Below the pieces are notes generated by a model. The model worked only from the letters and a program-made list of their open reading frames with translations. It had not been told where the DNA came from and did not search any database. From Opitutus terrae PB90-1 (GTDB lineage Bacteria; Verrucomicrobiota; Verrucomicrobiia; Opitutales; Opitutaceae): DNA of 64,000 nucleotides. The stretch covers positions 3,853,001 through 3,917,000 of the forward strand of contig NC_010571.1 of the NCBI RefSeq assembly GCF_000019965.1. Direction: 5' to 3'. A program made the position numbers and the translations under genes. Every line of letters starts with the position of its first letter. The first letter of the stretch is position 1. Below are positions 6,141 through 15,167 of the stretch, one piece after another.

Positions 6141-9100
6141 TCAGACGACTGCCCGTTCGCGAACTTGCTCGAGCAGCGCGAGCAACTCGTCCACCTGACT
6201 CGAATCGAATACCCCGTCCGGTCCCTGCGCGTTTACGTCGGTGAATGGAGATTCATAGAGCAATTTCGGCTCGACCACGCCTCGTTCGGTCAACTGATCC
6301 ACCACCATGTTCACGAACTCGAGTTGGTTGGCCGTGAGGATCTTCCCGGCCGTGAAGGCGTTCAACGCCTGCTTCGCGGCTTCGCGATCCAGCCCGACGA
6401 GCGAGCGCACGAAAAGCCCCAGACCGTCGCTGGCTGCCTTGGCCGTTTCCCACTGTTCGGGAGTGGCGACGCCGCTTTCGGCCAGCACCCGCTCCAGCTC
6501 CGCGAGATCTACGGCGGTCAGTGGTTCATTCATCCGCAGCTTCTGGATCGTGAGGTGGCTCTGATGCGCGCGCAAAAACGCCCGCACCTTCTCGCGGAAC
6601 TTCTCGAAGTTTTCCGCGGTGACGAAATCTGCGAGGACGACCTCCTTGGCCGCCGCCATTGAGTCCTCGAAGTCCGTGTAGATCGGTTTGCGCTGCCGTT
6701 TGTCGATGAGCTTGACCAGCGAGCGCAGGCGTTTGCGCGTCTGCTCGAGCATCGGGAGCGTCACGTCGGTCCACCATCCCTCCGTCTGCACTTCCAGAAT
6801 ACGGGCTAGTTGCGCCTGGATCATCGGGATGGCCGCCTTCTCCTCCAGCAGGCCGGCGATCGCGATCACCTGATTTTTGAGACGTTCGAACTCCCGCGCG
6901 TTCCGCAACACGGCGAGCTGAAGGTTCAGGATCAGCAGATCGAACCGTTTTGCTTCCTCCTCCTCCGGGTCCAGCTCCGTCGGCAAACCGGCCACATGAT
7001 AGGCCAGTTCGCCTCGAGCCGCGGAATCCATTGCGACCCAGGCCTCGGGCTTGGCGAACCGCTCGACGAGCCGTCGCTGCGGACGGACGACGAAATTGTC
7101 GACGTTCATCGCCGCCACTTCGGTCTGCAGAACCGCGCGCAGCTCGTGGCCGAGTTCGGCTTCGCCTTCCGCGGGCTCGTGCGACATTCCGGCGAAGGCT
7201 CGGTCGAGTTCGCCGATGACTTCCAGCCGCGCCGTGAAGATGCGCTTGCTTAGCGACGCGCCCAAAGCACCGGCGGTCGTCTCGGGGTGCTGGCTGAAGA
7301 ACTCGAGGTTCTGACAATAATCGAAGATGTAGAAGAAGGCCTTGTGTTTGCCCGGACCGAATAGATCCGGACACAGCCGGGTGCCGCGACCGATCATCTG
7401 CCAGAACTTCGTTTTCGATCGGACCAGTTTGAAGAAGACGAGATTGACGACCTCCGGCACATCGATGCCGGTGTCCAGCATGTCGACCGAGATCGCGATG
7501 TGCGGCATCTTCGCGGGATTGGAGAAGTCATCGATCAGCGATTGCGCATAGGGCAGCCCGCAGTGAATCACCCGGGCAAACGCGCCCTTGAGGTGCGGGT
7601 AGTTCACGTCAAAGCGCTGAGCGATGAACTCGGCATGATCCTTGTTCTTGGCGAACACGATCGTCTTTCCCAACCGGTCACCGCCGGCGACGGTTTGACC
7701 ATGCGTCATCAGGTGCTCCAGCACCTTGTCGACCGTGTCCTTGTTGAAGAGCCATTTGTTGACCGCCTCCGGTTCGACCCTCTGCGGAGTGGTGCCTTCC
7801 TCGTCCCACTCGACCCCGTCCCACTGTTCCTTCTCCTCCTCGGACAGGTCCTCATATTTGATCCCATCGCGCTGGAACTTCAGCGGGACCGACACGGCTT
7901 TGGCCGGCACGAGGAACTTGTCCGCCACCGCGTTCTTCAGGTCGTAGGCATCCGTTGGCACGCCTTTCTCCAGGTCGAACAGCCCGTAGGTGTCGCGATC
8001 GATTTCCTCCCGCGGTGTGGCCGTCAGGCCGACGAGCAGCGAGTCGAAATAGCGGAAGATCGCACCGTATTTTTGGTAAACCGACCGATGGGCCTCGTCG
8101 ATGATGACCAGATCGAAATGCCCGGTGCCGAAGCGCCGCTGGCCGTCCTTCGTCTCATCGATCAGCCCCATCATCGTCGGGTAGGTGGAGACAAACACGC
8201 GGCCCGCCGCCTCCGGTTCCGTCACCAGATTCACTGGTGACGCTTCCGGCAGGAAACGCTTGAACGCGTTCACCGCCTGGTTCACGAGCGCGGTGCGGTC
8301 GGCGAGAAACAACACCCGTTTCACCCAGTTGCATCGCATCAACAGGTCGCACAGCGCGATCACCGTCCGCGTCTTTCCGGCGCCGGTGGCCATGACGACG
8401 AGCGCCTTTCGTTCGCAGTCGGCCTCGAATGCCTCGCCGATTCGGCGGATCGCGCGGGTCTGATAGTAGCGTTCGACAATCGCCGGATTGATCGCGGCTC
8501 CAGCCAAGGAGGTGCGCGTTTGCCGCCGCAGGATCATCAGCTCCAGTTCGTCCTTCTTGCGAAAACCCTGGACCGGCCGCGGCGGATACAGCGCGTCATC
8601 CCACAGCCAGTGCTCATAGCCGTTCGAGCAGAAGATGACCGGCCGCCGTCCGAACTGCTGCTCCAGACAGTCGGCGTAAAGCTTCGCCTGCTGTTGGCCG
8701 ATCGCGGCACTTTTTCGCGTGCGCTTCGCCTCCACGACCGCGAGCGGTCGGCCGTCGTCGCCCCACAGCACGTAGTCGACATAGCCCTTCTTCTGCTGAT
8801 TCGGCATCCCGCTGACCTCGACCTCCCGGTCGCGGGGCTGATTCAGCGGCCAACCGGCTTCCTTGAGCAGCAGGTCGATGAACGCATCGCGGGTTTGTGC
8901 CTCGGAGTAGTCGTGCTGATCCGGCGTCGCGGCGTTGCGCTTTTTGATGGCGGCGATCTCCTGCCGCGCCTGTGCCAGCTCTTTGCTCAGCGTTTCCTTG
9001 TCCGCAAACAGCGCTGCGAGCCGTTTGTCCTTCTCGGCGAGTTGCGCCGCGAGTTTCTGCAACTGTTCCTGCGTCTGCGTCGGCACCGGCGCCGACTTCG

Positions 9101-9530
9101 GCAAGGTGTCCGGTTCAAACGCGAGGTCGTCCGCGGGCCGGGCGCCGCGGGCGTAGGTTCGGGTCAGCCAGAAACAGATGTGGAACAGCTCGCGCACCGT
9201 GGTCAGCGCGTCGAACGCCTTCACCGCGCGGTGGCTGTGCACCGCCTGGTTCCCGTAGCGCGTGATCAGCACCGCCTTGTTGAAGACCGCCGGGCCGGCT
9301 GCGGTCTTGAACGTGGGCTCGTGAATCAGCGCGCTCAGGTTCTGTTGATACGGCAGTTTCAGCGCGTCGTCGTTCGTGTAGAGCCACGTGACCCCGATCT
9401 CCAGCGCCCGCCGGGCGTAGAAGCACGCGGTCCGCGGATCGACCAGTGCCAGCGCTTCCGCCTTTGCCGCCGCCTCGAAAACCTCTGGCCACTCGGACTG
9501 GAGAAACGAAAACTGCGAACCGGCGCTCAT
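6141..9530 (-). CDS. hsdR: type I restriction enzyme, R (motor/nuclease) subunit
   Basis: Restriction and translocation subunit, about 1129 residues. In order: an N-terminal DUF4145-like region (residues about 1-140), a coiled coil (about 155-205), the HSDR_N nuclease region with DYVLWGDDGRPLAVVEAKRT (PD-(D/E)XK Asp and ExK), a superfamily II helicase core with VVMATGAGKTRT (Walker A) and DEAHRS (motif II), motif VI-like GRGTRLCPD, and an EcoEI-type C-terminal domain. This is the EcoEI/type IB-like architecture. The ATG at 9530 overlaps the stop of a truncated VapC reading frame by 4 nt, so translation is probably coupled. It needs HsdM and HsdS, encoded upstream in the same operon. Confidence 0.92.
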   Translation of the reverse strand: MSAGSQFSFLQSEWPEVFEAAAKAEALALVDPRTACFYARRALEIGVTWLYTNDDALKLPYQQNLSALIHEPTFKTAAGPAVFNKAVLITRYGNQAVHSHRAVKAFDALTTVRELFHICFWLTRTYARGARPADDLAFEPDTLPKSAPVPTQTQEQLQKLAAQLAEKDKRLAALFADKETLSKELAQARQEIAAIKKRNAATPDQHDYSEAQTRDAFIDLLLKEAGWPLNQPRDREVEVSGMPNQQKKGYVDYVLWGDDGRPLAVVEAKRTRKSAAIGQQQAKLYADCLEQQFGRRPVIFCSNGYEHWLWDDALYPPRPVQGFRKKDELELMILRRQTRTSLAGAAINPAIVERYYQTRAIRRIGEAFEADCERKALVVMATGAGKTRTVIALCDLLMRCNWVKRVLFLADRTALVNQAVNAFKRFLPEASPVNLVTEPEAAGRVFVSTYPTMMGLIDETKDGQRRFGTGHFDLVIIDEAHRSVYQKYGAIFRYFDSLLVGLTATPREEIDRDTYGLFDLEKGVPTDAYDLKNAVADKFLVPAKAVSVPLKFQRDGIKYEDLSEEEKEQWDGVEWDEEGTTPQRVEPEAVNKWLFNKDTVDKVLEHLMTHGQTVAGGDRLGKTIVFAKNKDHAEFIAQRFDVNYPHLKGAFARVIHCGLPYAQSLIDDFSNPAKMPHIAISVDMLDTGIDVPEVVNLVFFKLVRSKTKFWQMIGRGTRLCPDLFGPGKHKAFFYIFDYCQNLEFFSQHPETTAGALGASLSKRIFTARLEVIGELDRAFAGMSHEPAEGEAELGHELRAVLQTEVAAMNVDNFVVRPQRRLVERFAKPEAWVAMDSAARGELAYHVAGLPTELDPEEEEAKRFDLLILNLQLAVLRNAREFERLKNQVIAIAGLLEEKAAIPMIQAQLARILEVQTEGWWTDVTLPMLEQTRKRLRSLVKLIDKRQRKPIYTDFEDSMAAAKEVVLADFVTAENFEKFREKVRAFLRAHQSHLTIQKLRMNEPLTAVDLAELERVLAESGVATPEQWETAKAASDGLGLFVRSLVGLDREAAKQALNAFTAGKILTANQLEFVNMVVDQLTERGVVEPKLLYESPFTDVNAQGPDGVFDSSQVDELLALLEQVRERAVV

Positions 9531-9601
9531 GCTGGCGCGCGGGCGAGGAACACCTGCGGTGCCACCTCCATCAAAACGTTGGTGTCGACCAGCACCTTCA
9601 T
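9527..9601 (-). pseudogene. truncated VapC-like PIN-domain toxin
   Basis: A 24-residue frame starting MKVLVDTNVLMEV, the hallmark N-terminus of PIN-domain toxins with its first catalytic Asp, then stopping after LARAPA. A full VapC is about 130 residues, so all later catalytic acids are missing. Its ATG overlaps the stop of the upstream antitoxin-like gene (ATGA), as in vapBC operons, and its own TGA overlaps the hsdR ATG. The last 35 bp are GC-rich and resemble the dispersed hairpin repeat, which may mark the breakpoint. Non-functional as a toxin. Confidence 0.6.
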
Positions 9602-9831
9602 TCGCGGAGACGGCGATACCGCTCCAGGAGATAGACGAGCCGCGGATCGGAGGGATCGTCCTCCGGCAGCGTGAATTTTCCCGCCCAGCGCTGCGCCAGC
9701 GCCGAAGGCTCATGGCCGTCCATCCATGTCCGTGGGCGGCTCCGTAATGCTTTGGCCGCGCGCGCGATGGTGTCGACGATGACGTCGAGCAACCGGCGTG
9801 CTTTCGGGCGGGGAGGCGGGACGCGCGACAT
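9598..9831 (-). CDS. small antitoxin-like protein upstream of truncated VapC
   Basis: A 77-residue basic protein. Its C-terminus WAGKFTLPEDDPSDPRLVYL is the sort of acidic/hydrophobic tail found in antitoxins that pair with PIN toxins, and its stop overlaps the ATG of a truncated VapC by 4 nt. The N-terminal half (Arg/Ala rich) is not recognised and could be read from a different, fused sequence. With the toxin gone, it may be a relic kept as the upstream partner for hsdR translation. Function inferred from context only. Confidence 0.5.
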   Translation of the reverse strand: MSRVPPPRPKARRLLDVIVDTIARAAKALRSRPRTWMDGHEPSALAQRWAGKFTLPEDDPSDPRLVYLLERYRRLRE

Positions 9832-9882
9832 GGCGGGAGGAAACCGCCTGTAAGCTGCGCCCCCGCCGTGCCTCCCGCAAGC

Positions 9883-9987
9883 CTACAGCTTTGAGGTGCC
9901 GACGAACGCCACGTTGGCGATCTTGTTCATCTCACCCAGTGCCAGAACCACGATCCTTGAGCAGCGGTCGCGGGCGGTGCCGTTCAA
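9883..9987 (-). CDS. possible 34-residue ORF after the STAS-like gene
   Basis: A TTG codon overlapping the stop of the STAS-like gene (TTGA) opens a 34-residue frame ending IANVAFVGTSKL. The overlap style matches the rest of the operon, and an internal ATG is available at the MNKIANV segment. It could equally be the remnant of a longer gene that was cut by a deletion before the antitoxin-like gene. Too short to assign; it may not be translated. Confidence 0.25.
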   Translation of the reverse strand: MNGTARDRCSRIVVLALGEMNKIANVAFVGTSKL

Positions 9988-10295
9988 GCGTCGATCCGGC
10001 CCTCAATCTTTTGCAGGCCGAGATCGATGGCCGCCTCGACCAAGACCCGGACCATCGGATTGCAGCCTTTGAAAACGAAGCGAGCCAGGGCGGCCTCGCC
10101 ATGCTGCTCCACCAACCCGGCCACCAAGGCGTTCATGAACGAGCTGTTGGCACTCCGCACGCCCGTGAAGTCCAGGGTGATGCGCGGGGAGATGGCCACG
10201 TAGGGTTCGATTCGCGTGAGCCGGAAACGCGCGGCGGCTTCCCCATCGGCCAGATGGGCGCCGAATTCTTGGGCGAGCCGCAGTTCCACGTTCAC
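9984..10295 (-). CDS. STAS-like domain protein (DUF4325 type)
   Basis: A 103-residue protein. ITLDFTGVRSANSSFMNAL is the central motif of STAS-like DUF4325 proteins (beta strand, then Ser/Asn-rich turn and helix), reminiscent of anti-anti-sigma factors. Its start overlaps the stop of the preceding STAS/ATPase gene by 4 nt. DUF4325 proteins are commonly encoded next to GHKL ATPases, and the pair is thought to work as a partner-switch-like or sensing module. Here the pair sits inside a type I restriction operon between hsdS and hsdR. Confidence 0.75.
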   Translation of the reverse strand: MNVELRLAQEFGAHLADGEAAARFRLTRIEPYVAISPRITLDFTGVRSANSSFMNALVAGLVEQHGEAALARFVFKGCNPMVRVLVEAAIDLGLQKIEGRIDA

Positions 10296-11227
10296 GTGTC
10301 GAACTTCGCCCGACCTTGGCCGGGACGCAAGAGCCCAGATGCTCGTTTGGCCTGATCCAGGAGTTGCGCGAAATCGCGCACGCGGTCCTGTCGGAACGTG
10401 ACGGCAATCAAGGTGCCGGGGTAGCTGCCTCCGTCGCGCAGCGTGCCGGCCTGAGGTCGAGCAGAATCAGGATTCCAACGCACCACGCCCCGACCGCTGG
10501 CGACCAGGAGCCAAGCTGAGGCCAGTTCCGCCATCTTCGCGGTGAGCGTGAGGCCCACGCCTTCATTGGTCGGACTGCCTTTGGAAGAGATCCGGGGTTC
10601 GAGGGCCTTGAGGATGGCGCCGGTGTCATCCAGCGCGGCAGCCCACGGCAAACCGGCATCGCGGAAGCTTTGGCGGATGCCGCGACCGTTGTCCGCGATG
10701 GCGAGGCGCACGAGCCCCTCGGCGGCACCGACTTGGGCACAGGCGAAGCCGGCACCGCCGCTGTGCTGGCGCACGTTGTTGCCCATCTCGGTCAACACAT
10801 ACCAGACGAGATCGTAGAGTCCGGCGAGCGGATGCTCCCAGTCGTCGCCGCCCGGAGCGACACAGAGGGCCATCTCGCTGCCCATTTCCTGGACGCGATG
10901 ATCGATGACGCGCACGGGAACGAAACGACCGCGCGCATCGTGGCGGCTGAACATCTCCGGCAGGTTGAAACCGCAGACTGCGAGCACATCCATGCGCTGC
11001 AGATACCCGAGGATGGAGCAACGCTCGAGCCCTACAGCCTGGATGACAATTCCCCTCAGCCGCCAGGCCGCCACGCGGCTGCTCAGGGCGGCCAGCGCCG
11101 CCGGCGAGACTCTGCGTAGCGCGCTGAAGTCGATCACAACTTCGCGGTCGTCAGCCTCGGCGCCGATGAGAGTTAAGAAGGGCAGGAGACCATCGGCATT
11201 GACGATTTCCGGGAGCGTCAGGTGCAT
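10292..11227 (-). CDS. STAS plus GHKL-type ATPase protein
   Basis: 311 residues. Residues about 1-100 look like a STAS-type alpha/beta domain (VVIDFSALRRVSPAAL). Residues about 140-270 form a histidine-kinase-like ATPase: N-box TEMGNNVRQHS (147-156), G1 box IADNGRGI (177-184) and G2 box NEGVGLTL (221-228). There is no HisKA dimerisation domain or phospho-acceptor His, so it is not a classical kinase; it resembles anti-sigma-factor-type or MutL/Hsp90-like GHKL ATPases. It is followed with a 4-nt overlap by a STAS-like protein, its likely partner. A regulatory or defence-accessory role in the restriction operon is inference. Confidence 0.75.
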   Translation of the reverse strand: MHLTLPEIVNADGLLPFLTLIGAEADDREVVIDFSALRRVSPAALAALSSRVAAWRLRGIVIQAVGLERCSILGYLQRMDVLAVCGFNLPEMFSRHDARGRFVPVRVIDHRVQEMGSEMALCVAPGGDDWEHPLAGLYDLVWYVLTEMGNNVRQHSGGAGFACAQVGAAEGLVRLAIADNGRGIRQSFRDAGLPWAAALDDTGAILKALEPRISSKGSPTNEGVGLTLTAKMAELASAWLLVASGRGVVRWNPDSARPQAGTLRDGGSYPGTLIAVTFRQDRVRDFAQLLDQAKRASGLLRPGQGRAKFDT

Positions 11228-11245
11228 GGTCCAGGACGGTTGGGC

Positions 11246-11437
11246 TCAGAGTTCGCCGCAGAAGGCGCGGCGCTGGAGCAAGGCGAAGAGCGCGTCCAGC
11301 TCCGCCAGCGACGCGCGTAGCGGCGTCTTCAGCGACGCTGCCAGCCCGGCTTTGGCTTTGATGAACTGATTCATGCTCTCGGCCAGCGCGTCGCTGCCGT
11401 TGTCGCCCTCGTGGATGGGGATGTTCTGCTGCTGCAT
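11246..11437 (-). CDS. small ORF ending in a copy of the HsdS C-terminus
   Basis: 63 residues from the ATG at 11437 (MQQQNIP); an upstream in-frame ATG at 11485 would give 79. The last 26 residues (RASLAELDALFALLQRRAF region) repeat the C-terminal tail of HsdS (RASLAELDALFASLQHRAF) with near identity at DNA level. The first part is unlike HsdS and contains an MNQFIKAKAGL helix. It lies 18 bp upstream of the STAS/ATPase gene. It could be a scrap of a second hsdS left by duplication, or a small protein that uses the HsdS dimerisation/HsdM-docking tail. Confidence 0.5.
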   Translation of the reverse strand: MQQQNIPIHEGDNGSDALAESMNQFIKAKAGLAASLKTPLRASLAELDALFALLQRRAFCGEL

Positions 11438-11485
11438 GGGGCTGGGCTGGAAAATTGAGAATGCGCGACAGATCGCGGGCGCCAT

Positions 11486-12316
11486 TCATGGTGCCGGGAC
11501 GAGATCAGGACCGCATCCAGACGAGACGCTTCCTATCGAGACCATCACCGGCTCGCCAAATGTAAATAACGCTCCGGCGCAGAGAGCCCGCTTCACGTGC
11601 GCCGCAGTAGCGGGTGAACGCTTGTCCAATCCGCGGATGGCCTTGAATGCATCGTTGAACGAGAGCGGCATTTCCACCACCCGGAAGGGCAGCGTGGAGG
11701 GCTTTCCCAAGCGTTCATGAAAACGCTCGAGTTCGCGAAGGTAGTGCTCGGTCGAGGCGGAAGCTCGGTCCGGTGACGGCGCAAAGTGCAGGTAAACCAA
11801 CTCCGGGTTGAGCTTCCGTTGGTGGCCCAGATAAGCCGCCGAGGCGGCGCGATGCACCATCTGATAAATGATGTCGGAAAAGTCGTCGACGCAAAGGGAC
11901 CTCCGGCAGTGTGGCTGCAAGTGCGCCAACCAGCCTGCCACCGTCAATCGCGGATCGCCGCCGTCACTCTCCGGCTTGCTGATGCGCTGTGCGACTGTCT
12001 GCCGGTCGACCGGCTCGGTCCACTTCGCCTCCACCGCCCACACGTTGGCAGAGGAGGCGAACACCGCATCCGTTTGTGACGGGTTGCCCTTCGGCTTGGG
12101 CGAGGGCACGCCCAGTTCGAAGGCAACGGCGCAATCCGCGGGCGCGCCCAGCCGACGTAGAAAACGCTCCCAGGCCGACCCGCCACCGTAAACCAGATCG
12201 ATCAGCGGCACGGTGGAGCGAGTGGGCGACTGGAGCTGTTTTGTGCTGAAGCTCCCGCACAGCGCCGTCAGGTCCGGACATTCTCGAACGTCGAAGAAAT
12301 GGGCGACTCTCTTCAT
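11486..12316 (-). CDS. putative PD-(D/E)XK nuclease in restriction operon
   Basis: 276 residues, start ATG overlapping the hsdS stop by 4 nt (ATGA). No family is recognised with certainty, but FELGVP (Glu67), QTDAVF (Asp83) and VWAVEAKW (Glu96, Lys98) have the order and spacing of a PD-(D/E)XK nuclease core: Glu in the first helix, Asp at a strand, then ExK on the next strand. The rest is soluble alpha/beta with several Cys. Translational coupling to hsdS and the neighbouring GHKL/STAS pair suggest a DNA-acting accessory to the type I system. Catalysis is inferred from motifs alone. Confidence 0.6.
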   Translation of the reverse strand: MKRVAHFFDVRECPDLTALCGSFSTKQLQSPTRSTVPLIDLVYGGGSAWERFLRRLGAPADCAVAFELGVPSPKPKGNPSQTDAVFASSANVWAVEAKWTEPVDRQTVAQRISKPESDGGDPRLTVAGWLAHLQPHCRRSLCVDDFSDIIYQMVHRAASAAYLGHQRKLNPELVYLHFAPSPDRASASTEHYLRELERFHERLGKPSTLPFRVVEMPLSFNDAFKAIRGLDKRSPATAAHVKRALCAGALFTFGEPVMVSIGSVSSGCGPDLVPAP

Positions 12317-13479
12317 AGGTCGCCGCGGAAGGCGCGGTGCTGGAGCGAAGCGAAGAGCGCGTCCAGCTCCGCCAGCGACGCGCGCTGCGTCGTCTTCAGC
12401 TTTTCGACCGCCGCGACGCGCCGGGCGAATTCGCGCTGAAGGGACGCAGGTGGCCGAAAAGCCGGATACTTCTCGAGTAGTTCCAAATTCACACCGGTCT
12501 GACCTGCAGTTCGTTCGGATCGCGCTACGACGTAGGAATGGAGACGTTGTTCTTGAAGCAGGTGAAAAACAAAATCCTTTGAGACTTCATCTTTCGGCAG
12601 GGCTTTCATCAGGGCGACGTTGTATGACCCGCACAGGCCGCGAAGAATTTGGAACACTGGCGGACCGTATCGCCCGATCATTACGTCGTCCTCATTAAAG
12701 AATCGGCGGGCAAGTCTGCGAGGGATGTAGGTCTTGAACTCGTCTGACTTGAAGTCGCGGATTTGGACCAACCGGATTGTGTCTGGCGACGGTTCGTAGG
12801 TGAATGTCTCCCGAGGGGGTTGAGAGCCACCAACGAACTCGATAATCTCGCCAAGGACAGTCTTGGGCCAGCCTTTCGGGTTAGTTGCGGGATCGCCGAA
12901 GAGGTCGAGGAAGAGGCATTGGGTGAGGGAGTCGAGTTGGGCGAGGGTGGCGCGGCGCTTCGCCCGCAACGCCTCTGCCCGGTCCAGCACCTCCGCAATC
13001 CGCCGCTGCTCCGCCAGCGGAGGAAGGGGGACTCGAATTCTTGCAACGTGCGCCGGCCGGGCGCGGAGCAGTGAACCTCCTACGCCTGAAACGGTGCTCA
13101 TGAACTTGGCGTGGAAGCGGTCTTCAACCAGCAGATGACGTATGTAGCCGGGGAAGATGCGAGCGTTGCGGAACACAATCCACTCACTCGACGCAATCAT
13201 GCGCCTACCGCGACTTGCGCCCACAACCCAAGCCCGTCGGATATGCGGCACGATTTTCGAGAGCAGCACGTCGCCTGTTTCAACTGCTTGCTTCGTCGAG
13301 CCGATTTGCGCACCAGTCAGAACTTCGGGCTTCTGAGAATCGAAAGCCGGTATGCTGTAGAGGTCGAACGGCTCGTCAGCATGATTTGCCGGGTCGACGG
13401 ACTCCCCGCGACCGGGCATGAGTTCGCCAAGCTCTACTCTCGGCCATTCGCCGTTCGTCGCTCGACTCCCGGCCTTCAC
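12313..13479 (-). CDS. hsdS: type I restriction enzyme, specificity subunit
   Basis: 388 residues from a GTG that overlaps the hsdM stop (GTGA). Two target-recognition halves are visible: TRD1 (about residues 10-170) ending in PLPPLAEQRRIAEVLDRAEA with the first conserved helix, and TRD2 (about 195-345) ending in a second helix with ASLAELDALF. TRD1 opens with WPRVELGEL and TRD2 with WPKTVLGEIIEF, the usual repeated domain start. It sets the bipartite DNA target of both methylation and cleavage and docks HsdM. Its 3' end is duplicated about 1.07 kb downstream. Confidence 0.9.
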   Translation of the reverse strand: MKAGSRATNGEWPRVELGELMPGRGESVDPANHADEPFDLYSIPAFDSQKPEVLTGAQIGSTKQAVETGDVLLSKIVPHIRRAWVVGASRGRRMIASSEWIVFRNARIFPGYIRHLLVEDRFHAKFMSTVSGVGGSLLRARPAHVARIRVPLPPLAEQRRIAEVLDRAEALRAKRRATLAQLDSLTQCLFLDLFGDPATNPKGWPKTVLGEIIEFVGGSQPPRETFTYEPSPDTIRLVQIRDFKSDEFKTYIPRRLARRFFNEDDVMIGRYGPPVFQILRGLCGSYNVALMKALPKDEVSKDFVFHLLQEQRLHSYVVARSERTAGQTGVNLELLEKYPAFRPPASLQREFARRVAAVEKLKTTQRASLAELDALFASLQHRAFRGDL

Positions 13480-15167
13480 TTCAGCATCCCTTCCAGTTCC
13501 TTCATGCCCTGCTGGATCTCTGTCTCCAGTTTTCTGAGCGCTTTCAGGATTTCCTTTGGCGGGCGGTGGGCGACTTCTTCGTGGACGACTTCCCGATAGC
13601 GGTTGAGCGAGAGGTCGTAGCCTTGCGCGGCGATGTCGGCCTTCGGCACGCAGAAGCTCTGGGCGGTGCGCGGGCGGGCGAGTTCCGGAGAGTTGAGAGT
13701 TGAGGGTTGAGAGTTGAGAGGCCGAGCCTTGCCGGTGACGTCGCCGTACGGCGCGGGTGGTTCGGCGGCGATTAGTTCGGGCGATGCCATGGACGTCCCG
13801 GTCATCGGCTCTGAGTTCACGGGCGGGACGCCCGTGCCACGTTGCAGAGAATTCCACCGCGCGAGCAGGTCGGGCAGGTTGTTCTTCGCGTGTTCGTCGG
13901 CGGTGAGCGGGACCTTCGGCACCGGGCCGAGCTTCTCCGACGGCAGCAGTTCTGTGCGCTTGTCGTCGAGCGACATCCCGTCGGCCTCGACCTTGTAGAA
14001 CCAGACATGGTCCGTGCCGCCGGAATTCGTCTTTGTGAACAGCAGGATCGCGGTCGACACGCCGGCGTAGGGCTTGAACACACCGCCGGGCAGCGAAATC
14101 ACCGCGTCGAGTTTCTGGTCCTCGACGAGGAGCTTGCGCAGTGTCCGATGCGCGTTGGACGAACCGAAGAGCACGCCATCGGGCACGATCACGGCGGCGC
14201 GCCCGCCGGGCTTGAGCAGCCGCAGAAAAAGCGCGAGGAAGAGCAGTTCGGTCTTCTTCGTCTTCACGATCTGCTGGAGGTCCTTCGCGCAATTCTCGTA
14301 GTCGAGCGACCCGGCGAACGGCGGGTTGGCGAGCAGCAGCGTGAACTTCTCCTCTTCGCCGGCGTGATCCTGCGCGAGCGAGTCGCGGTAGCGGATGTCG
14401 GGATTCTCCACGCCGTGCAGCAGCATGTTCATGCTGCCGATCCGCAGCATCGTGTTGTCGAAATCGAACCCGTGGAAGAGGTGGTGATGGAAATGCTGCC
14501 GGAGCTTCGTGTCGCGGAGGATTTCCGGATGCCGCGTGCGCAGGTATTCGCCGGCCGCCACGAGGAAGCCGGCAGTGCCGCACGCCGGATCGCAGATGAC
14601 GTCCTTCGCCGTCGGCGCGGTGAGCTCGACCATGAGCTGGATGATGTGTCGCGGCGTGCGGAACTGGCCGTTCTGGCCGGCGGAGGCGATCTTCCCCAGC
14701 ATGTATTCGTAGAGGTCACCCTTGGTGTCGCGATCCTCCATCGGGATCTGGTCGATAAGGTCGACGACCTTGGCCAGCAGCGCCGGCGTGGGGATCGTGA
14801 ACCGCGCATCCTTCATGTGGTGCGCGTAGGTGGAGTCATCGCCGCCGAGCGTGCGCAGGAAAGGGAAGACGTGCTCGCTGACGACGGTGAACATCTCCTT
14901 GGCCTCGAGATGCTGGAAGCGCGACCAGCGGCAGTCCTCGTAGGGGCGCCCCTTCGCATCCTTGGCGGCGGGGAAGATCCGGCGCTCGAGTTTTTTCAGC
15001 TTCAGCCGGGCGGCCTTGTTTTCCTCGTTCTTCTGCAGGTCATCGAGCCGCTTCAGGAAAAGCAGGTAAGTGATCTGTTCGATCACCTCGAGCGGGTTGG
15101 AAATGCCGCCCGTCCAGAAGGCGTTCCAGAGTGCGTCGATTTGGGAGCGGATTTGACCGGTGAGCAT
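13476..15167 (-). CDS. hsdM: type I restriction enzyme, methyltransferase subunit
   Basis: 563 residues. HsdM N-terminal helical domain (LWNAFWTGGISNPLEVIEQI), then the SAM-dependent N6-adenine methylase: motif I DPACGTAGF (near residue 193) and motif IV NPPF (near 282). First gene of the restriction operon. Residues about 442-492 are unlike the family and are encoded by repeat DNA: one copy of the dispersed GGGCGGGACGCCC hairpin (13815-13840) and a run of GTTGAGAGTTGAGGGTTGAG (13691-13720). The frame is kept and the C-terminus (LSLNRYRE) returns to the family pattern, so the subunit may still be active. Confidence 0.9.
   Translation of the reverse strand: MLTGQIRSQIDALWNAFWTGGISNPLEVIEQITYLLFLKRLDDLQKNEENKAARLKLKKLERRIFPAAKDAKGRPYEDCRWSRFQHLEAKEMFTVVSEHVFPFLRTLGGDDSTYAHHMKDARFTIPTPALLAKVVDLIDQIPMEDRDTKGDLYEYMLGKIASAGQNGQFRTPRHIIQLMVELTAPTAKDVICDPACGTAGFLVAAGEYLRTRHPEILRDTKLRQHFHHHLFHGFDFDNTMLRIGSMNMLLHGVENPDIRYRDSLAQDHAGEEEKFTLLLANPPFAGSLDYENCAKDLQQIVKTKKTELLFLALFLRLLKPGGRAAVIVPDGVLFGSSNAHRTLRKLLVEDQKLDAVISLPGGVFKPYAGVSTAILLFTKTNSGGTDHVWFYKVEADGMSLDDKRTELLPSEKLGPVPKVPLTADEHAKNNLPDLLARWNSLQRGTGVPPVNSEPMTGTSMASPELIAAEPPAPYGDVTGKARPLNSQPSTLNSPELARPRTAQSFCVPKADIAAQGYDLSLNRYREVVHEEVAHRPPKEILKALRKLETEIQQGMKELEGMLK
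13691..13840 (-). repeat. dispersed repeats inside hsdM
   Basis: Positions 13691-13720 are a tandem of GTTGAGA/GTTGAGG units and 13815-13840 are a copy of the ACGGGCGGGACGCCCGTGCC hairpin. Both are repeat families seen elsewhere between genes (for example 54625-54643 and 21202-21227). They encode an Asn/Ser/Thr/Pro-rich linker in HsdM and cause no frameshift. Confidence 0.75.

What the first reader, a model, noticed from the sequence alone, without database searches (positions are those of the whole stretch)
9984..12316. Accessory module inside a type I restriction operon: nuclease-like, STAS/GHKL ATPase and STAS-like proteins
Between hsdS and hsdR lie a putative PD-(D/E)XK protein (Glu67, Asp83, ExK at 96-98), a small ORF, a STAS-GHKL ATPase and a DUF4325 STAS-like protein. 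Most are joined by 4-nt overlaps. GHKL plus STAS-like pairs resemble partner-switch regulators; placed here they may sense infection and control HsdR, or form an independent defence system with the nuclease. I know of no described system with this exact content.
Basis: partly seen in the sequence, partly recalled or inferred. Interest (0 to 1): 0.75.

Follow-up and report, generated by a model that had tools for sequence, protein, structure and literature searches.

The report
Kinase switch inside a restriction operon
A bacterium's DNA-cutting defence operon carries two unrelated add-ons, a probable DNA-cutting enzyme and a kinase-plus-latch pair like one recently shown to sense DNA damage, which may switch the defence enzyme on or off after it is made.

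Summary
Between hsdS and hsdR of a type I restriction operon lie a DUF6946-like PD-(D/E)XK nuclease, a small ORF, a STAS-GHKL protein and a DUF4325 STAS-like protein. It is not one four-gene module: among the genomes sampled, only the window's has both nuclease and pair. The small ORF is a relic: its last 88 nt repeat the hsdS 3' end at 90%, so the nuclease lies between two hsdS tails; a second genome has a homologous nuclease between hsdS-tail copies.

The pair matches a recently described switch: the only PDB sequence hit of the DUF4325 profile is VapS, and the STAS-GHKL model fits SpoIIAB best (Z 13.7). It has neither the VapC toxin of VapKSC nor the helix-turn-helix domains of CapKS. In 9 of 22 class-wide DUF4325 places the gene sits at type I hsdR; in 4 of those 9 no kinase was found.

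Best reading (0.4): DUF4325 is a protein latch on the restriction subunit, released by kinase phosphorylation; the nuclease is an independent, perhaps PrrC-like, add-on. Partner, direction and signal are inferred. New variant of a known kind.

The parts
13476..15167 (-). hsdM, type I methylase subunit (563 aa)
   Evidence: Pfam N6_Mtase 201 bits, HsdM_N; PADLOC MTase_I E=2e-188
12313..13479 (-). hsdS, specificity subunit; GTG start overlaps the hsdM stop by 4 nt
   Evidence: PADLOC Specificity_I E=3e-79 (scanned as 12313-13500); start read
12313..12400 (-). hsdS 3' tail, first copy of the 88-nt direct repeat
11486..12316 (-). DUF6946-like PD-(D/E)XK nuclease (276 aa; E67, D83, E96xK98); ATGA overlap with hsdS
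11246..11485 (-). small ORF (79 aa) whose C-terminal ~28 aa copy the HsdS C-terminus; an internal ATG at 11374 would give a 42-aa ORF
11246..11333 (-). hsdS 3' tail, second copy (90% identical over 88 nt)
   Evidence: E=5e-30
10292..11227 (-). STAS-GHKL protein (311 aa), SpoIIAB-like kinase domain with N-terminal STAS domain
9984..10295 (-). DUF4325 STAS-like protein (103 aa), VapS homologue; Ser51-Ser52 at the presumed phospho-acceptor position
9714..9983 (-). gap of 270 nt between DUF4325 and the hsdR ORF
6141..9713 (-). hsdR, restriction subunit with N-terminal DUF4145; probable true start Met62 at 9530, because homologues that reach the N-terminus mostly align from residues 44-67

Best explanation
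Two independent add-ons share the hsdS-hsdR gap. (1) The STAS-GHKL/DUF4325 pair is a VapK/VapS-type kinase switch. DUF4325 binds a protein of the type I system, most likely HsdR, as a latch. The STAS-GHKL kinase, activated by single-stranded DNA from phage or DNA damage, phosphorylates DUF4325 on Ser51 or Ser52 and the latch lets go, switching restriction after translation. (2) The DUF6946-like nuclease came as a separate cassette between two hsdS tails and is probably held silent by the type I complex, as PrrC is. Shown here: gene content, homology to VapS, SpoIIAB-like fold, conserved ATP-site and serine positions, recurrence at hsdR, independence of the nuclease, the hsdS-tail relic. Inferred: kinase activity, ssDNA as signal, HsdR as partner, the direction of the switch, latency of the nuclease.
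For: DUF4325 profile against the PDB: one hit, Escherichia VapS 9z7o, E=6e-4. STAS-GHKL model (pLDDT 84): SpoIIAB ranks first with Z 13.7, rmsd 2.4, 132 residues; the best rows outside the anti-sigma kinases are at 9.9; residues 1-89 match a chain of the sulfate-transporter family, Z 8.8, whose C-terminal domain is STAS by recall. E147, N151, D179, G181, G223 and G225 are kept in 18 of 18 aligned rows; Ser52 in 19 of 20 DUF4325 rows. DUF4325 has no room for a DNA-binding domain, so it probably acts through a protein. DUF4325 places in 315 class genomes: 22; 9 lie at type I hsdR, next to it or one gene away, against 0.11 expected at a generous hand-set 0.5% per place (binomial 9e-16). In 4 of those 9 no kinase was found: a DUF3800 gene (L069), a macro-domain gene (L128), an ImmA/IrrE peptidase gene (L133) or a PIN-like gene (L134; by eye, Pfam shows only a weak DUF3368) lies upstream, and DUF4325 is still near hsdR. 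In the kinase tree the type I label needs 6 changes, at least 3 forced. VapS inhibits VapC until phosphorylated (PMC13373217).
Against: 12 of the 22 DUF4325 places show no hsd gene in the stretch fetched (phmmer with Hsd queries only; several contigs are short), so HsdR next door cannot be the only partner; of 12 genomes with such a pair or ATPase away from hsd genes, 9 have an HSDR_N domain elsewhere, one of them weak. In L023 and L134 (Fic) and L027 (DUF3037) another gene separates DUF4325 from hsdR; L134 and L026 have truncated hsdR; in L002 only a C-terminal hsdR piece was found; L134 shows no hsdM or hsdS. L059 has another gene order and its DUF4325 scores just below the Pfam cut-off. The aromatic ssDNA contact is not universal: Trp at window position 55 in 7 of 18 rows, and I had no VapK or CapK sequence to align. 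In the HMMER alignment the VapS serine falls on Ser51, which varies in the family, not on the nearly invariant Ser52. The tree has 9 of 15 weak inner branches and several long ones, and the type I label is no more clustered than in shuffles (364 of 500 as low), so it speaks for frequent shuffling of the pair as much as for repeated recruitment. No interaction was computed.
Confidence: 0.4

Rival explanations
1. Same parts, opposite direction: the switch is a built-in restriction-alleviation device. DNA damage activates the kinase, and the changed DUF4325 turns HsdR off so that the host's own unmodified DNA is spared during repair.
For: Type I systems are suppressed after DNA damage (PMC3874165, passages). 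EcoKI uses ClpXP for this, while EcoR124I does it without ClpXP or proteolysis (PMC4231737, passages). CapK answers to ssDNA (PMC13373217).
Against: In VapKSC and CapKS phosphorylation releases, rather than starts, inhibition. For EcoR124I the paper offers dilution of free HsdR as the cause, so no extra protein is needed in general. No data on direction here.
Confidence: 0.17
2. Passengers: hsdS-hsdR gaps are landing sites for defence genes; the pair and the nuclease work on their own and have nothing to do with HsdR.
For: The gap holds many unrelated genes: Dsr1-like, PD-Lambda-3_B and RmrA-like, AbiEi/AbiEii and GmrSD, Fic. The pair also occurs away from hsd genes and in a Bacteroides phage. 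hsdS-tail repeats bracket the nuclease.
Against: DUF4325 stays close to hsdR in several kinase lineages and also where no kinase was found; the nuclease follows hsdS or an hsdS tail directly in 3 of 4 loci, with three different kinds of HsdR.
Confidence: 0.22
3. The nuclease is the effector of the pair, as VapC is in VapKSC: DUF4325 holds the DUF6946-like nuclease inactive until phosphorylated.
For: Same operon; a nuclease is the known partner of VapS.
Against: No sampled genome other than the window's has both. An hsdS-tail relic lies between them, which suggests separate arrivals.
Confidence: 0.1
4. Transcriptional controller like CapK/CapS that raises expression of hsdR or neighbours after DNA damage.
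For: 88 of 443 capKS pairs lie just downstream of restriction systems (PMC13373217); the pair precedes hsdR with a 270-nt gap.
Against: DUF4325 here is 103 aa with nothing beyond the STAS-like domain and the kinase starts directly with STAS; both helix-turn-helix parts of CapKS are missing.
Confidence: 0.08

Closest known systems
VapKSC (EMBO J 2026, PMC13373217)
   Same: STAS-GHKL kinase without HTH followed by a small STAS-like protein; the DUF4325 profile hits VapS; Ser at the acceptor position.
   Different: No VapC/PIN toxin; 103 aa, so a shorter C-terminal region than that of VapS (residues 94-116 in the paper); located in a type I restriction operon next to hsdR.
CapK + CapS (same paper)
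   Same: GHKL kinase plus STAS protein beside defence genes, often near restriction systems.
   Different: No HTH on the kinase, no wHTH on the STAS protein; sits inside the hsd operon, not between a restriction operon and another system.
EcoprrI with PrrC (type IC operon with an embedded anticodon nuclease; PMC3874165 and PMC2610378, passages)
   Same: A nuclease gene embedded in a type I operon.
   Different: The nuclease is a DUF6946-like PD-(D/E)XK protein, not an ABC-ATPase anticodon nuclease.
DUF6946 / PF22187 putative restriction endonucleases (PMC10584680, passages)
   Same: Active-site pattern; EndoMS ranks third among the structural matches (Z 7.4).
   Different: The window protein scores below the Pfam cut-off (21.2 of 27 bits) while three homologues pass; in the three testable loci of four it lies right after hsdS or an hsdS tail.
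SpoIIAB-SpoIIAA / RsbW-RsbV partner switches
   Same: Kinase fold and STAS-type substrate.
   Different: No sigma factor or phosphatase gene between hsdM and hsdR.

Membership tests
VapKSC | STAS-GHKL kinase without HTH | tested here: met
   Model: STAS-like 1-89 and SpoIIAB-like 100-282; kinase activity itself not tested
VapKSC | VapS-like STAS partner encoded next to the kinase | tested here: met
   4-nt overlap; profile hits VapS 9z7o, E=6e-4
VapKSC | conserved Ser/Thr in the STAS domain | tested here: met
   Ser51 and Ser52; Ser52 in 19 of 20 rows; the HMMER alignment puts VapS S48 on Ser51, so which residue is the acceptor is open
VapKSC | VapC (PIN) toxin in the operon | tested here: not met
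   No PIN domain among the operon proteins scanned
VapKSC | aromatic ssDNA-contact residue (VapK F54, CapK W68) | tested here: inconclusive
   Trp55 in the window, Trp in 7 of 18 rows; no VapK/CapK sequence was available to align
VapKSC | activation by ssDNA | not testable with these tools
   needs protein
CapKS | HTH on the kinase and wHTH on the STAS protein | tested here: not met
   311-aa kinase starts with STAS; 103-aa partner is STAS-like only
Type I restriction-modification | HsdM, HsdS and HsdR in one locus | tested here: met
PrrC-type embedded anticodon nuclease | located in the hsd operon | tested here: met
   between hsdS and hsdR
PrrC-type embedded anticodon nuclease | ABC ATPase and anticodon-nuclease domains | tested here: not met
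   only DUF6946 found, 276 aa
DUF6946 (PF22187) | score over Pfam's cut-off | tested here: inconclusive
   window 21.2 of 27 bits; homologues 29.1, 35.5 and 38.1
DUF6946 (PF22187) | (E/D)-Xn-(E/D)XK active site on a nuclease fold | tested here: met
   E67, D83, E96xK98 invariant in 4 of 4; nuclease folds lead the list but all Z are below 8

The most novel reading that the evidence does not exclude
DUF4325 is a dedicated latch protein of type I restriction enzymes with exchangeable input genes: a GHKL kinase in most operons, but an ImmA/IrrE peptidase (L133) or a macro-domain protein (L128) upstream in others. Restriction would then be licensed or alleviated after translation by whichever sensor is plugged in, and add-on genes would enter these operons as cassettes bounded by hsdS 3' tails.
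Probability: 0.2. Interest if true: 0.85.

Novelty: new variant of a known kind. Interest (0 to 1): 0.6.

Why it matters
Type I enzymes must be kept from cutting their own chromosome after DNA damage; the passages I read name ClpXP proteolysis for EcoKI and a ClpXP-independent way for EcoR124I (PMC4231737). A kinase-controlled latch beside hsdR would be another, post-translational control of restriction and is testable with plating assays. It would also place VapS-like proteins beside an effector other than VapC, and the hsdS-tail repeats give a physical clue to how add-on genes enter restriction operons.

Tried and rejected
Rejected: one four-gene system (no second sampled genome with both parts). 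Rejected as a gene of its own: the small ORF (hsdS-tail copy). Not pursued: the 77-aa ORF before hsdR (no significant match outside this genome in the loci held; best other E 0.04).

Led nowhere: viral contig scans with the ATPase and nuclease profiles (no relative confirmed); plasmid search with the DUF4325 and with the nuclease (none); PDB search with the single DUF4325 sequence (none) and with the nuclease profile (one hit of E 0.86); ResIII search in 13 genomes (found in 13 of 13 and in all 14 controls, so uninformative); literature phrase search for genes embedded in type I systems (25 of 148 listed, nearly all on collagen or tumour cells). The Foldseek list of the nuclease model had no match below E 0.06. 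The GTDB pattern scan with the ATPase found one locus. Two plasmid records matched the window ATPase and three a divergent one; three phage records matched another. Of these eight, six were opened; none showed annotated hsd genes in the stretch, though DNA methylase genes lie on the other strand in two.

Caveats on counts: the 22 DUF4325 places come from 315 genomes at E<=1e-5. The 18-row kinase and 20-row DUF4325 alignments leave out fragmentary or weak ATPase matches (L028, L031, L032, L054, L055, L057, L058) and the later loci L128-L137; 11 DUF4325 proteins printed (L069 among them) show the same SF motif by eye. In the HsdR survey 40 of 47 places were fetched anew, four were already held (G000, G176, G273, G147) and three were left out (G226, G056, G234). 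Gene maps used a longest-ORF caller that missed some genes. 'No hsd gene' rests on phmmer with Hsd queries; other restriction types were sought only in chosen neighbours. The chance rate for the binomial figure was set by hand. The hsdS-tail count has 42 entries but one gene was entered twice, so 41; two further loci (L073, L074) gave short matches to a second hsdS-like gene and were not counted as tails.
Full report
What is there. The stretch 9984-12316 lies inside a type I restriction operon on the minus strand: hsdM, hsdS, a nuclease-like gene, a small ORF, a STAS-GHKL gene, a DUF4325 gene, then hsdR. Junctions are -4, -4, 0, +18, -4 and +270 nt. The genome is one 5.96-Mb contig; the nearest named relative of the ATPase is in an Opitutaceae MAG, 58% identical. 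The hsdR frame is 1190 aa, but homologues that reach the N-terminus mostly align from residues 44-67 on, so the true start is probably Met62 at 9530.

Two modules, not one. The ATPase was found in 13 of 286 class genomes and, with a profile, in 10 of 387 phylum genomes. The nuclease was found in 4 of 286 and, with a profile, in 4 of 384. Each count includes the window's own genome, the only one with both.

The nuclease. E67, D83 and E96xK98 are invariant in 4 of 4 sequences. The model (pLDDT 83.5, four-row alignment) matches SfsA, NucS/EndoMS, Can2, PaqCI, BglII and McrC among the better rows, all with Z under 8, so the fold is likely but not proven by that alone. The family DUF6946 was described as putative restriction endonucleases most like EndoMS (PMC10584680, passages). 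The window protein scores below Pfam's cut-off; three homologues score above it. In three of four loci the gene lies in a type I operon right after hsdS or an hsdS tail: window (4-nt overlap), L035 (hsdS-like ORF 6730-8268, E 9e-10 to the window HsdS, nuclease 8265-9038; two opposite-strand ORFs then precede hsdR) and L034; in L036 the contig ends at the gene and no hsd gene was found. The HsdR proteins of the three loci differ in kind. An embedded nuclease held silent by a type I complex has a precedent in PrrC (PMC3874165, passages).

The hsdS-tail relic. The last 88 nt of hsdS (12313-12400) recur at 90% identity at 11246-11333, the end of the small ORF, so the nuclease lies between two hsdS 3' ends. 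In L034 the hsdS tail occurs four times: real hsdS end, the end of an 85-aa ORF, a mini ORF overlapping the nuclease stop, and the end of a 213-aa ORF; the nuclease lies exactly between copies two and three. Of 41 distinct hsdS genes examined (42 entries) only window, L034 and, with a short weak copy, L075 show such extra tails. This fits cassettes entering by recombination at hsdS 3' ends; the mechanism is inferred. A comparable hsdR relic beside rloC is on record (PMC2610378, passages).

The pair. The N-terminal STAS and C-terminal GHKL parts are supported by weak Pfam hits, by ATP-site residues (E147, N151, D179, G181, G223, G225 in 18 of 18 rows) and by the model, whose best match is SpoIIAB at Z 13.7 against 9.9 for the best rows outside the anti-sigma kinases. 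The DUF4325 profile has a single PDB sequence hit, Escherichia VapS. Ser52 is kept in 19 of 20 rows; the exception L059 has Ser at 51, as VapS has in the HMMER alignment. VapS and CapS are switched by kinases of this kind; CapK needs ssDNA, and vapKSC protects E. coli against at least one phage (PMC13373217, parts 1-5 of 12). The window pair lacks VapC, and it lacks the helix-turn-helix domains of CapKS.

Where the pair sits. ATPase hits in the 20 genomes plus the MAG: type I genes adjoin in 7 of these 21 (G000, G218, G273, G034, G176, G147 and the MAG L002). A type III system adjoins in G020, a IIG enzyme and SNF2 helicase on the other strand in G011, and PDC-M27 genes in G373. DUF4325 hits in 315 class genomes: 22 places in 21 genomes, of which 9 lie at type I hsdR: G000, G029, G034, G165, G176, G194, G218, G238 and G273. 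Five of the nine have the kinase. In G238 a DUF3800 gene, in G029 a macro-domain gene, in G165 an ImmA/IrrE peptidase gene and in G194 a PIN-like gene (by eye) lies upstream instead, and tblastn with 18 kinases found nothing there; G194's locus is decayed, with only a C-terminal hsdR piece and no hsdM or hsdS found. The remaining 13 places: one type III, twelve without an hsd gene in the stretch fetched (phmmer with Hsd queries). At a hand-set, generous 0.5% chance per place, 9 or more of 22 has probability 9e-16. In the tree of 18 kinases the type I label changes six times, at least three forced by well supported branches, and is not clustered (364 of 500 shuffles as low): the pair moves in and out of type I loci often.

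The gap as a hotspot. Among 40 further HsdR loci none had the nuclease and one (L069) had DUF4325. The hsdS-hsdR gap elsewhere holds Dsr1-like, PD-Lambda-3_B and RmrA-like genes, AbiEi/AbiEii, GmrSD and Fic genes. So 'passenger' is the main rival. Against it stands the repeated placement of DUF4325 near hsdR, also where no kinase was found.

Mechanism. I think it most likely that DUF4325 is a latch on HsdR or the type I complex that the kinase opens. Homology, fold, residues and placement are shown; partner, signal and direction are inferred. The opposite direction would make it a restriction-alleviation device; known cases are ClpXP-dependent (EcoKI) or ClpXP-independent (EcoR124I, where dilution of free HsdR is proposed; PMC4231737, passages).

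Prior art searched. DUF4325: two papers, neither opened. GHKL with STAS, restriction-modification and defense system: two papers, one of them PMC13373217. Two of STAS-like, GHKL and type I restriction: one, the same paper. Nested or embedded genes with hsd terms: one, not opened. DUF6946 and hsdS-tail words: seven, two opened for passages. PrrC/RloC and rlo terms. The titles and abstract starts listed name no hsdR-linked DUF4325; most of the listed papers were not read, and subscription journals are mostly not held.

Noticed in passing
L034:6317-11120: Four copies of the hsdS 3' tail (107 nt, 73-97% identical to the reference copy) bracket accessory genes; in the three extra copies an ATG stands directly before the tail. 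Looks like a cassette array.
   Followed up: partly
L069:11632-11961; L128:397-702; L133:9066-9407; L134:9409-9726: DUF4325 near hsdR with no kinase found; the upstream genes are DUF3800, macro domain, ImmA/IrrE peptidase and a PIN-like protein (by eye) respectively (L134 is a decayed locus).
   Followed up: partly
L023:3731-6637 and L034:2135-5218: HsdR proteins with a GIY-YIG nuclease domain inserted inside the helicase part, each preceded by a Fic gene.
   Followed up: no
L030:8805-15540: STAS-GHKL/DUF4325 pair just upstream of a type III-like methylase and restriction gene.
   Followed up: partly
L024:10187-11503 and L027:10693-12018: A 438-aa protein without Pfam match next to the kinase in L024 is homologous to two consecutive ORFs (204 and 216 aa) in the same place in L027.
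   Followed up: no
L026:6464-7184 and L128:2435-3146: A piece of hsdS is a separate ORF; in L026 an IS200-like Y1 transposase gene lies before it, and L128 has an ORF of equal size (150 aa) in that place.
   Followed up: no
window 9598-9831 (-): 77-aa ORF between DUF4325 and the probable hsdR start, without a significant homologue in the loci held.
   Followed up: partly
L064:4572-5815: Bacteroides phage BF1-TP2 carries an adjacent ATP-binding/DUF4325 gene pair (4-nt overlap).
   Followed up: no
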